The notes under the pieces were generated by a model. That model had not been told where the DNA came from and ran no database searches. It was given only the letters and a program-made list of their open reading frames with translations. From assembly GCF_000739695.1 (NCBI RefSeq), contig NZ_BBIO01000003.1, positions 1 to 64,000 on the forward strand: a stretch of 64,000 nt of DNA, given 5' to 3'. The translations under genes and the position numbers were made by a program. Within the stretch, counting starts at the first letter, position 1; the number at the start of each line of letters is the position of its first letter. This DNA comes from Tepidicaulis marinus. GTDB taxonomy: Bacteria; Pseudomonadota; Alphaproteobacteria; Parvibaculales; Parvibaculaceae. Shown here one piece after another: positions 51,556 to 54,846 of this stretch.

Positions 51556-54500
51556 TCAGTCCGCCGCCAGGCCCCGCAGCACATAAGGCAGGATGCCGCC
51601 ATTGTTGAAGTAGTCGACTTCATCCTGCGTATCGATGCGGGCAAGCAGCGTCACGTCCTTGGTGCTGCCATCTTTGAAGGTAATGGTGGCCGTCACCTTC
51701 TGTCGCGGTTTGATCGAGGAAAGTCCCTCGATCGTCACGGTTTCCGACCCGTCGAGGCCCAGCGACTGCCAGCTCTGGCCTTCTTCGAACTGCAGCGGGG
51801 CGACGCCCATGCCGACCAGGTTCGAGCGGTGAATACGCTCGAAGGACTGGGCGATCACGGCCTTCACGCCGAGTAGGTTCGTGCCCTTGGCCGCCCAGTC
51901 GCGGCTGGAGCCGGTGCCGTATTCCTTGCCCGCGAAGATGACGAGCGGGGTGCCGCGCTCTTTATACTTCATGGCGGCATCGTAAATCGGCATCTCCTCG
52001 CCTTCCGGCTGCAGCTTCGTTACGCCGCCTTCCACGCCCGGCACCATCTGGTTCTTGATGCGGATATTGGCGAAGGTGCCGCGCATCATCACTTCGTGGT
52101 TACCGCGGCGCGAGCCGTAGGAGTTGAAGTCCTGCACGCCGACCTGGTGACGCGTGAGATAGCTGCCTGCCGGGCTTTGCAGCTTGATGGAGCCGGCCGG
52201 CGAGATGTGGTCGGTGGTGATCGAGTCGCCGAAGAGGCCGAGAACGCGGGCATCCTTGACGTCCTCGAAACCGGGCGCTTCCGGGCGCAGACCTTCGAAA
52301 TAAGGCGGGTTCTGCACGTAGGTCGACTCGCCGTTCCAGGCGTAGGTCTGGCCGCCCGTCACTTTGATCGCCTGCCAGTGCTTGTCGCCCTTATAGACGT
52401 CCGCATAGCGCTTGCGGAACATCTCCGGCGTCACGCAGGAGCGCACCGTCTCGGCCACTTCCTTGTTGGTCGGCCAAACGTCTTTCAGATAGACGTCCTT
52501 GCCGTTCTTGTCCGTGCCGATCGGGTCCTTGGAAATGTCGATCGTGGTCGAGCCGGCAAGGGCGTAGGCAACGACGAGCGGAGGCGAGGCGAGATAGTTC
52601 GTCTTCACATCCGGGCTCACGCGGCCCTCGAAGTTGCGGTTGCCGGAAAGCACGGAGGAAACGACCATGTCGTTCTCGTTGATGGCTTTCGAGATCGGCG
52701 CGGGCAGCGGGCCCGAATTGCCGATACAGGTCGTGCAGCCATAGCCGACGAGATCGAAGCCCATGGCATCGAGATCGTCCTGCAGGCCGGCTTTTTCCAG
52801 ATAGTCGGTGACGACCTGGGAGCCAGGGGCCAGCGAGGTTTTCACCCAGGGTTTCACCTCCAGGCCGAGCGCGCGCGCCTTGCGGGCGACGAGACCGGCG
52901 GCCACCAGAACCGAGGGGTTCGAGGTGTTGGTGCAGGACGTGATGGCGGCGATCACCACATCGCCGTGGCCGAGGGTGAAGTTTTCCCCTTCCACTTCGA
53001 CGCGGCGGTGGGCTTCATCGCCCTTGCCGAATTCATCGGCCAGCGTCTTGGAGAAGCTCTGCGCCACATTGGAAAGCGCCACGCGGTCCTGCGGGCGTTT
53101 CGGGCCGGCAAGGCTCGGCTCGACGTCGGAAAGATCGAGTTCCAGCGTGTCGGTGAAGACCGGATCGGGCGTGTCCTTGGTGCGGAACATGCCCTGTTCC
53201 TTGGCATAGGCTTCCACGAGCTTGACGCGGTCCTCGTCGCGGCCGGTGGCGCGCAGATAGGCAAGCGTCTGCTCGTCTACCGGGAAGAAGCCGCAGGTCG
53301 CGCCATATTCCGGCGCCATGTTCGAGATCGTGGCCTGGTCTTCCAGGGTCAGATGATCGAGGCCCGTGCCGAAATATTCGACGAACTTGCCGACGACGCC
53401 CTTCTTGCGCAGCATTTCGGTGATGGTCAGCACCATGTCGGTGGCCGTCACACCTTCTTTCAGCTTGCCGGTCAGTTTGAAGCCGATCACTTCCGGGATC
53501 ATCATGGAAACCGGCTGGCCGAGCATGGCCGCTTCCGCCTCGATGCCGCCGACGCCCCAGCCGAGAACCGAGAGGCCGTTGACCATGGTGGTGTGGCTGT
53601 CCGTGCCCACGCAGGTATCGGGATAAGCCATTTCGATCAGGTTGCCCGCGCCGTCTTTTTCCTGGCGGGTCCAGACCGTCTGCGCCACATGCTCCAGGTT
53701 CACCTGGTGGCAGATGCCCGTGCCGGGCGGCACGACGTTGAAATTGTCGAAGGCCTGGCTGCCCCAGCGCAGGAACTCATAGCGTTCCTTGTTGCGCTGG
53801 TATTCCAGATCCACGTTTTCCTTGAAAGCGGTCGGCGTGCCGAAGCTGTCCACCATCACCGAGTGGTCGATGACGAGGTGCACCGGCACTTGCGGGTTGA
53901 TCTTGTCGGCGCTGCCGCCGAGAGCGGAAACCGCATCGCGCATCGCGGCAAGGTCCACAACGGCGGGCACGCCGGTGAAGTCCTGCATCAAAACGCGGGC
54001 CGGGCGGTAGGCGATTTCGCGCGTGCTCTTGCGCGTTTCCAGCCAGTCCTTCAGGGCCTTGATGTCATCGGCCGTGACCGACCGGCCGTCTTCGAAGCGC
54101 AGCAGATTTTCCGCCAGAACCTTGAGCGAGAAGGGCAGGCGGGAGATCCCGTCCAGACCGTTCTTCTCGGCCTCTTTCAGGCTGTAGAACGTGTATTCTT
54201 TCGAGCCCACTTTCAGCGTCTTATAGGCGCCGAAGGAGTTCTTACCGAGGGGCGACAGACTCACTTTACTCGTTGTCCTTTTGACTGAGGGTTTCTTGGT
54301 TTTGGGCGCGGCCTTCGTCTTGGCCTTTGCTTTGGACTTGGGCGCCGATTTTGCCGCCGTCTTGCGGGCGGCGGGCTTTTTCACCGTGGCTTTTTTCGCT
54401 GCGGTCTTCTTTACGGCTGTCTTCTTGGCAGCCGTTTTCTTTTTGGCCGGGCTCTTCTTCTTGGCTGCGACCTTCTTTTTTGCGGCCTGTTTTTTGGCGG

Positions 54501-54846
54501 CGGCCTTGCGCTTGGTCGTGGCCTTGCCGGCGGTCTTCTTCACCGCTTTTTTCTTGGCGCTTGTCTTACGCTTTGGCGCTGCCTTCTTCGCGGCTGTTTT
54601 CTTTTTGGCGGCGGTTTTCTTCCCTGCCGTCTTCTTCTTGGCCGCTACTTTCTTTTTGGCAGCGGTCTTTTTCTTGGCGACGGTTTTCTTTTTCGGGGCG
54701 GCTTTGCGCGAGGCGGTTTTCTTCGCAGCGGTTTTCTTCTTCACGGCAGCTTTCTTGGCCACCTTTTTCTTGGCAGTGGTTTTCTTTGCCACCTTTTTCT
54801 TGGCGGATTTCTTCGCCGTGGTTTTCTTGGCTTGGGCTTTGGCCAT
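51556..54846 (-). CDS. acnA: Aconitate hydratase A with in-frame histone-H1-like N-terminal extension
   Basis: 1096 residues from the ATG at 54846 (AGGA ribosome site). Residues 1 to about 190 are almost entirely Lys/Ala/Thr ([19 protein letters not shown]-type repeats), like the C-terminal domain of histone H1; the remaining ~900 are a complete aconitase/IRP-type enzyme of the TCA cycle (citrate to isocitrate). Cluster cysteines are in [15 protein letters not shown] and [12 protein letters not shown]; substrate loops [32 protein letters not shown] and [12 protein letters not shown] are intact. A GTG at 54264, 11 nt after AGGA, could start a normal 902-residue enzyme, so fused, free, or both products are possible. 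The frame is uninterrupted over the join. Confidence 0.93.

What the first reader, a model, noticed from the sequence alone, without database searches (positions are those of the whole stretch)
54264..54846. Histone-H1-like Lys/Ala domain fused in frame to aconitase
Seen: about 190 residues of KKTAAKK-type repeats run without a stop into a complete AcnA. The ATG at 54846 has a good ribosome site, while a GTG at 54264 (11 nt after an AGGA) could give normal-length AcnA. Known: AcnA normally begins at the catalytic fold, and H1-like repeats condense DNA or bind RNA. Apo-aconitase is an RNA-binding regulator in some bacteria and as IRP1 in animals. Inference: the extension may tether aconitase to the nucleoid or to RNA, or the locus may make two proteins from one mRNA.
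Basis: partly seen in the sequence, partly recalled or inferred. Interest (0 to 1): 0.85.

Follow-up and report, generated by a model that had tools for sequence, protein, structure and literature searches.

The report
Aconitase carrying a histone-H1-like tail
In one family of alphaproteobacteria, and again in the genus Ferrovibrio and some of its kin, the energy-metabolism enzyme aconitase carries a long lysine-rich tail of the DNA-packaging type at its front, which suggests that the enzyme is tied to the chromosome or to RNA, much as yeast mitochondrial aconitase associates with mitochondrial DNA.

Summary
Confirmed. One frame (54846-51556, minus strand) encodes about 200 K/A-rich residues (82 K, 5 R, no D/E in 203) followed by a complete AcnA/IRP1-type aconitase, the only aconitase found in the genome. 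It is no assembly accident: 34 of 35 AcnA loci of family f1 (the tool's grouping) carry such an extension, 148-278 aa in the 33 with a resolved start, each an ATG with AGGA 7-11 nt upstream. In 24 of 34 no ATG/GTG/TTG lies in the 30 codons before the catalytic part, so the 'two proteins' idea is not supported by conservation. The tail behaves as coding DNA (dN/dS 0.06-0.24, 14 pairs). A second family (Ferrovibrio and kin) has it in 11 of 14 genomes with AcnA; the longer gene tree rejects one clade, the shorter does not. Eleven other proteins of the genome have K/A tails or are K/A-only, among them PdhA, ArgJ, MarR, UvrA, TopA and trigger factor. Best reading: a polycationic tail tethering aconitase to the nucleoid or another polyanion, as proposed for PhaF/AlgP tails. 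No binding was tested. New variant of known parts; five literature searches bearing on it listed no tailed aconitase.

The parts
54265..54846 (-). Lys/Ala-rich, histone-H1-like N-terminal extension of AcnA (residues 1-194; the low-confidence stretch of the model runs to residue 198, 54253)
   Evidence: HC2-like at 35.4 bits, below the 40-bit cut-off; residues 1-198 pLDDT < 50
51556..54237 (-). AcnA/IRP1-type aconitase catalytic part (residues 204-1096 plus stop)
   Evidence: NF006757 and TIGR01341 over cut-off; human IRP1 2b3x E 1.9e-296; cysteines C638, C704, C707 invariant in 30 of 30 aligned sequences
54849..54859 (-). ribosome-binding sequence GAGGATGAGGA before the ATG at 54846
   Evidence: AGGA 7-11 nt before the ATG in 33 of 33 family members with a resolved start
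54262..54264 (-).
   Evidence: GTG at this codon in 3 of 34 tailed loci (G000, G001, G004); no ATG/GTG/TTG in the 30 codons before the core in 24 of 34
59605..60348 (-). MarR-type regulator with a C-terminal K/A tail of about 34 residues, neighbouring example of the same module
62541..62954 (-). free-standing 137-aa H1-like protein between ispZ and ftsY
   Evidence: PF07382 44.1 bits over its cut-off in the six-frame search; NF038053 28.3 bits, below its cut-off of 80; neighbours

Best explanation
The gene makes one protein: a complete AcnA aconitase with a roughly 200-residue, probably disordered, polycationic H1-like tail at its N-terminus (shown at the level of sequence and conservation). 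The tail most likely binds polyanions without sequence specificity, chromosomal DNA first, and so holds part of the cell's aconitase at the nucleoid (inferred). It would work as the tails of PhaF and AlgP are thought to work, by charge and length rather than by a fold. Bound aconitase could protect or compact DNA, or couple its Fe-S/oxidative state to the nucleoid, as reported for yeast Aco1 in mitochondria (inference by analogy).
For: Conservation: 34 of 35 AcnA loci, from 35 of 40 genomes of family f1. At most 4 acidic residues in any of the 34 tails. Coding constraint: dN 0.021-0.212 against dS 0.093-1.519, ratio 0.06-0.24, in 14 pairs, with third-position changes in the majority in all 14. 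Second occurrence in family f93: 11 of 14 genomes with AcnA, one clade with f1 rejected on 690 columns, p-AU 0.005. Catalytic part and Fe-S cysteines intact. Residues 1-198 pLDDT < 50, core folded. In the same genome similar tails sit on proteins that act on DNA: MarR, CarD-like, UvrA, TopA-like. Papers: fragments of the AlgP tail bind DNA, and PhaF/AlgP are thought to tether granules to the nucleoid (PMC9239181, abstract and passages); yeast Aco1 binds mtDNA, and its nucleoid role does not need catalysis (PMC7463775, passages).
Against: No binding, localisation or protein evidence was found. The tail also decorates proteins that need not touch DNA (PdhA, ArgJ, trigger factor, PBP1a-like). HC2 and NF038053 match the tail below their cut-offs. 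In 13 of 14 pairs and more the tail changes faster at the protein level than the core does (dN). On 330 columns one origin of the two tailed groups was not rejected, and the joint tree even scored higher (p-AU 0.54). G006, filed in family f1, has an AcnA without tail, though it groups with Oricola/Rhizobium. Anderseniella, which NCBI files under Parvibaculaceae, has no tail (L085, L107). Low pLDDT is expected for low-complexity sequence, and only two of the 30 aligned rows hold a tail.
Confidence: 0.5

Rival explanations
1. The tail is an RNA-binding (mRNA or ribosome) module that reinforces an IRP1-like regulatory role of apo-aconitase, or brings AcnA to polysomes.
For: The catalytic part is IRP1-type (2b3x, E 1.9e-296); trigger factor, a ribosome-bound chaperone (recalled), carries a similar tail. 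Polycations bind RNA as readily as DNA (established chemistry).
Against: No Rfam match in 50500-56000; no target RNA known; several other tailed proteins here act on DNA.
Confidence: 0.22
2. Neutral or weakly selected low-complexity growth: K/A-coding repeats spread by slippage and accumulate at the ends of many proteins in these genomes.
For: Eleven further K/A-tailed or K/A-only proteins in the genome; tail length varies 148-278 aa; neighbouring species differ by up to 44 gapped codons, and tail dN exceeds core dN.
Against: Tail present in 34 of 35 loci; acidic and aromatic residues nearly absent; dN/dS 0.06-0.24 in 14 pairs; recurrence on AcnA in a second family.
Confidence: 0.15
3. The tail targets AcnA to polyphosphate or a condensate rather than to DNA.
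For: AlgP, with an H1-like tail, was found on polyphosphate granules (PMC9239181, abstract and passages); a phasin-like protein of this genome has a K/A tail.
Against: I saw nothing in the locus that points to polyphosphate; not searched for specifically.
Confidence: 0.08
4. Two proteins: a long tailed form from the ATG at 54846 and a normal-length AcnA from the GTG at 54264.
For: The GTG exists, with an AGGA 11 nt upstream, and is shared with G001; G004 has a GTG at the same codon.
Against: 24 of 34 tailed loci have no ATG/GTG/TTG in the 30 codons before the core; the spacing to AGGA is long.
Confidence: 0.05

Closest known systems
AcnA / IRP1-type aconitases (TIGR01341, NF006757)
   Same: Whole catalytic part, Fe-S cysteines, both Pfam aconitase domains.
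   Different: Here about 200 K/A-rich residues precede the catalytic fold; 110 of 121 distinct AcnA loci read outside family f1 have fewer than 10 K in any 40 residues there.
PhaF / AlgP H1-like KPAA tails (Pseudomonas)
   Same: K/A-rich, disordered, strongly basic tail on another domain, thought to tether the partner to the nucleoid (PMC9239181, passages).
   Different: There C-terminal and on granule proteins; here N-terminal and on a TCA-cycle enzyme.
Chlamydial HC2 / Burkholderia H1-like proteins (PF07382, NF038053)
   Same: Composition; weak profile matches of the tail (35.4 and 24 bits).
   Different: Free-standing small proteins (recalled); both matches of the tail fall below the curated cut-offs of 40 and 80.
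Yeast mitochondrial aconitase Aco1 as mtDNA nucleoid protein
   Same: An aconitase at a nucleoid (PMC7463775, passages).
   Different: Other aconitase subfamily: this protein scores 272.8 bits against a cut-off of 825 on TIGR01340. That Aco1 is of that subfamily and lacks such a tail is recalled, not tested.
Actinobacterial TopA with C-terminal lysine repeats
   Same: Lysine-repeat tail on an enzyme (PMC7398561, start of abstract in the listing); a TopA-like contig-end fragment of this genome has one too.
   Different: TopA acts on DNA by trade; aconitase does not.

Membership tests
AcnA aconitase | Full-length match over curated cut-off | tested here: met
   NF006757 1476 bits (686), TIGR01341 1392 bits (945)
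AcnA aconitase | Three Fe-S ligand cysteines | tested here: met
   C638, C704, C707 invariant in 30 of 30 aligned sequences; that these are the ligands is recalled
AcnA aconitase | Protein begins at the catalytic fold | tested here: not met
   About 200 K/A-rich residues precede it
AcnA aconitase | Catalytic activity | not testable with these tools
   -
Histone H1-like HC2 (PF07382) | Profile match over cut-off | tested here: not met
   35.4 bits for the tail alone, 29 for the whole protein, 31.3 in the genome search; cut-off 40
Histone H1-like HC2 (PF07382) | K/A-rich, basic composition | tested here: met
   82 K, 54 A, no D/E in 203 residues
PhaF/AlgP-type nucleoid tether | DNA binding by the tail | not testable with these tools
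   -
PhaF/AlgP-type nucleoid tether | C-terminal KPAA-repeat tail on a granule protein | tested here: not met
   N-terminal, mainly KK(K)xAA-type repeats, on an enzyme
IRP1 RNA-binding regulator | Binding of iron-responsive RNA elements | not testable with these tools
   Sequence relative only; no Rfam match in 50500-56000
Mitochondrial-type aconitase (as yeast Aco1, recalled) | TIGR01340 over cut-off | tested here: not met
   272.8 bits, cut-off 825.35

The most novel reading that the evidence does not exclude
These bacteria fasten part of central metabolism (aconitase, pyruvate dehydrogenase E1 alpha, ArgJ) to the chromosome by H1-like tails: a genetically built-in bacterial counterpart of the metabolic enzymes found in yeast mitochondrial nucleoids, in the class usually named as the source of mitochondria, and arrived at more than once for aconitase.
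Probability: 0.2. Interest if true: 0.9.

Novelty: new variant of a known kind. Interest (0 to 1): 0.7.

Why it matters
A TCA-cycle enzyme with its own chromatin-type tail would make an old question directly testable: whether aconitase at a nucleoid is a yeast peculiarity or a wider link between metabolism and genome maintenance. The tailed organisms include a sequenced type strain (contig G011 has exactly the genome size printed for P. lavamentivorans DS-1), and the tail could be removed without touching the catalytic part. It also shows K/A tails as portable modules on enzymes, which family models score below cut-off.

Tried and rejected
Frameshift or assembly artefact: rejected, because the same in-frame fusion stands in 34 of 35 AcnA loci of the family, each from another genome. 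Internal start for a normal AcnA: not supported by conservation. One origin of tailed AcnA in the two families: not rejected on 330 columns and 80 rows (p-AU 0.54; the tree with them together scored 4.3 log units better than the free one), rejected on 690 columns and 55 rows (p-AU 0.005, 68.9 units worse; L017 was dropped as too short). G006 as a true loss: its AcnA (contig of 4,074 bases) falls with Oricola and Rhizobium (branch support 99 and 100), so I take it for a foreign contig or a replacement, but holding it with the family was not rejected on 330 columns (p-AU 0.138). Long open frames elsewhere in the class and phylum: the 20 and 12 loci that I chose to read showed tails only in family f93; the others, such as G130, G088, G349 and G698, are open frames without lysine-rich sequence. 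Short lysine-rich starts in family f18 (L033-L036) and f121 (L037) were not counted as tails. RNA element in 50500-56000: none over Rfam's thresholds. Pattern scan of 53900-55300: no sigma-70-type site; 9 terminator-like sites against 4.9 expected, all on the plus strand, which I read as an effect of K codons. Literature: five searches bear on a tailed aconitase or on such tails on enzymes; I saw their listings, and no title or start of abstract names one. The other five were for background. Preprints and most subscription papers are not in that library.

Not done: no fold search of the model; PdhA and ArgJ tails were not compared with families outside the window's order.

Full report
What is there. 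On the minus strand, the ATG at 54846 opens a frame of 1096 codons that ends at 51556-51558. Its first about 200 residues are a K/A-rich tail: in residues 1-203, 82 K, 54 A, 5 R, no D or E and no aromatic residue, net charge +87, computed pI 12.0. The rest is a complete AcnA: NF006757 from residue 203 (1476 bits, cut-off 686) and TIGR01341 from residue 216 (1392 bits, cut-off 945), both Pfam aconitase domains, human IRP1 2b3x as the best solved relative (E 1.9e-296), and cysteines 638, 704 and 707 invariant in 30 of 30 aligned sequences (that they are the Fe-S ligands is recalled). The only other PF00330 hit in the genome is LeuC, so this is the only aconitase found. AlphaFold2 on a 30-row alignment gives residues 1-198 pLDDT below 50 and a folded catalytic part with two short weak stretches (mean pLDDT 75.7, pTM 0.76). 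Only two of the 30 rows hold a tail, so the low confidence there says little beyond the composition.

Conservation in the family. The tool holds 40 genomes of the window's order, all of family f1; 35 have an AcnA match. G011 is a single contig of 3,914,745 bases, the genome size printed for Parvibaculum lavamentivorans DS-1 (PMC3368416, abstract and passages). G012 and G007 have contigs of the same length, and the same first 200 AcnA core residues, as the named records NVWR01000003 ('Rhodobiaceae bacterium isolate NORP32') and BAOK01000002 ('Alpha proteobacterium Mf 1.05b.01'). I read all 35 AcnA loci: 34 carry an in-frame K-rich extension. In the 33 with a resolved start (G018 has undetermined bases there) it is 148-278 residues long, median 204, with 28-46% K. 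The highest K count in any 40 of the last 120 residues before the core is 13-22 in these 34 loci and 0-5 in 108 of 121 distinct loci outside the family. Each of the 33 starts is an ATG with AGGA 7-11 nt upstream. The exception, G006, lies on a 4,074-base contig of a 68%-complete genome, and its AcnA falls with Oricola and Rhizobium. NCBI's Parvibaculaceae is wider than f1: Anderseniella, filed there, has no tail (L085, L107).

One protein or two. A GTG at the codon of 54264 occurs in 3 of the 34 tailed loci (G000, its congener G001, and G004); 24 of 34 have no ATG, GTG or TTG in the 30 codons before the catalytic part, and the rest have scattered ones. A second start there is not a conserved feature.

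Coding constraint. In 14 species pairs, codon-aligned tails show dN 0.021-0.212 and dS 0.093-1.519 (ratio 0.06-0.24); third-position changes outnumber first and second together in all 14. The alignment was guided by the protein, gaps were made in whole codons by construction, and the pairs are not independent, so this supports translation in this frame without measuring selection exactly. The tail changes faster than the core: its dN is higher than that of the first 200 core codons in all 14 pairs.

Elsewhere. In family f93, 14 of 18 genomes have an AcnA match. The name Ferrovibrio rests on the record L103, whose first 300 AcnA core residues equal those of G429. Of the 14, 11 have a K-rich in-frame extension: clear and long in the nine of genus g179, at the threshold of 10 K in 40 in G430 (more Ala/Pro/Thr) and G421 (short); G128, G433 and G420 have none. 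Among 121 distinct AcnA loci read outside family f1, these 11 are the only ones that reach the threshold. The 121 are no random draw: most are best hits of one scan, others were picked for long open frames or long matches. Short lysine-rich starts exist in f18 and f121. In wider samples (385 genomes of the class, 298 with a match; 299 of the phylum, 226 with a match) I read only chosen loci. On 690 AcnA columns and 55 sequences, the tailed AcnA of f1 and of genus g179 fall apart and a joint clade is rejected (p-AU 0.005); on 330 columns and 80 sequences it is not (p-AU 0.54). Two gains is the likelier reading, not a proven one.

The tail is a module in this genome. The pattern for KKxAAKK occurs 55 times in the genome, against 3 for the reversed control, in 15 clusters. 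Besides acnA, 11 clusters lie in genes that I could name: the MarR-type regulator at 59605-60348, UvrA, a TopA-like contig-end fragment, trigger factor and a phasin-like protein (C-terminal tails); PdhA (pyruvate dehydrogenase E1 alpha), ArgJ, a PBP1a-like protein and a CarD-like protein (N-terminal); and two free H1-like proteins, one of them at 62541-62954 between ispZ and ftsY. Three clusters (on C19, C31, C37) were not assigned to a credible gene. In the family, ArgJ has a K/R-rich N-terminus (at least 20% K+R) in 30 of 30 loci read (37 of 40 genomes have a match, one of them partial) and PdhA in 27 of 28 evaluable loci of 30 read (40 of 40 genomes have some match, two of them only weak ones). 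My script took the Met that gives the highest K+R share, which favours such a result, and I did not test other families; a short basic PdhA start in rhizobia is what I recall. In P. lavamentivorans (11 hits of a related pattern, control 0) a malate dehydrogenase ends in a short K/A stretch. Among the tailed metabolic enzymes seen, AcnA has the longest tail.

How it most likely works. Shown: one conserved frame, a complete aconitase, a polycationic low-complexity tail, recurrence. Inferred: the tail binds polyanions. For such tails a role as nucleoid tether is proposed: fragments of the AlgP tail bind DNA, and PhaF and AlgP are thought to hold granules to the nucleoid (PMC9239181, abstract and passages). 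An aconitase at a nucleoid has a precedent: yeast Aco1 binds mtDNA and stabilises it independently of its catalytic activity (PMC7463775, passages), and PDH E1 alpha of Bacillus subtilis is reported over the nucleoid (PMC8270655, passages). This protein is not of the mitochondrial subfamily, so the likeness is one of role, not of descent. RNA or ribosome binding is the main rival. Neutral growth of K/A repeats is the sober one, weakened by the persistence of the tail and by its recurrence.

Verdict. Observation confirmed. Interpretation partly supported: fusion yes, tether plausible and untested, dual product not supported. Closest description: AcnA aconitase with a PhaF/AlgP/HC2-like tail, a new variant of known parts. 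Five literature searches that bear on it (listings seen) named no tailed aconitase.

Noticed in passing
window 59605-60348 (-) and 62541-62954 (-): Two further K/A proteins lie within 9 kb of acnA: a MarR-type regulator with a C-terminal K/A tail and a free 137-aa H1-like protein between ispZ and ftsY. The free H1 gene could be the donor of the AcnA tail, which low-complexity sequence cannot prove.
   Followed up: partly
L149, L202 and loci L209-L268: PdhA (pyruvate dehydrogenase E1 alpha) and ArgJ also carry basic N-terminal extensions in most loci read in the family.
   Followed up: partly
L146, L148, L197, L199, L200: K/A tails on trigger factor, UvrA, a phasin-like protein, a PBP1a-like protein (N-terminal) and a TopA-like contig-end fragment in the same genome.
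   Followed up: partly
L147:1490-2631 (+): CarD-like gene whose K/A N-terminal part changes reading frame near a run of seven A (about 1620-1630): assembly error, broken extension or frameshifting; not compared with the congener.
   Followed up: no
   Followed up: no
L143 (G006 contig 366): AcnA without tail, falling with Oricola/Rhizobium: probably a foreign contig in that genome bin, or a gene replacement.
   Followed up: partly
L033-L036 (family f18), L037 (G344, family f121): Short lysine-rich starts before AcnA, about 10-40 residues, in other alphaproteobacterial families: perhaps remnants or beginnings of such a tail.
   Followed up: no
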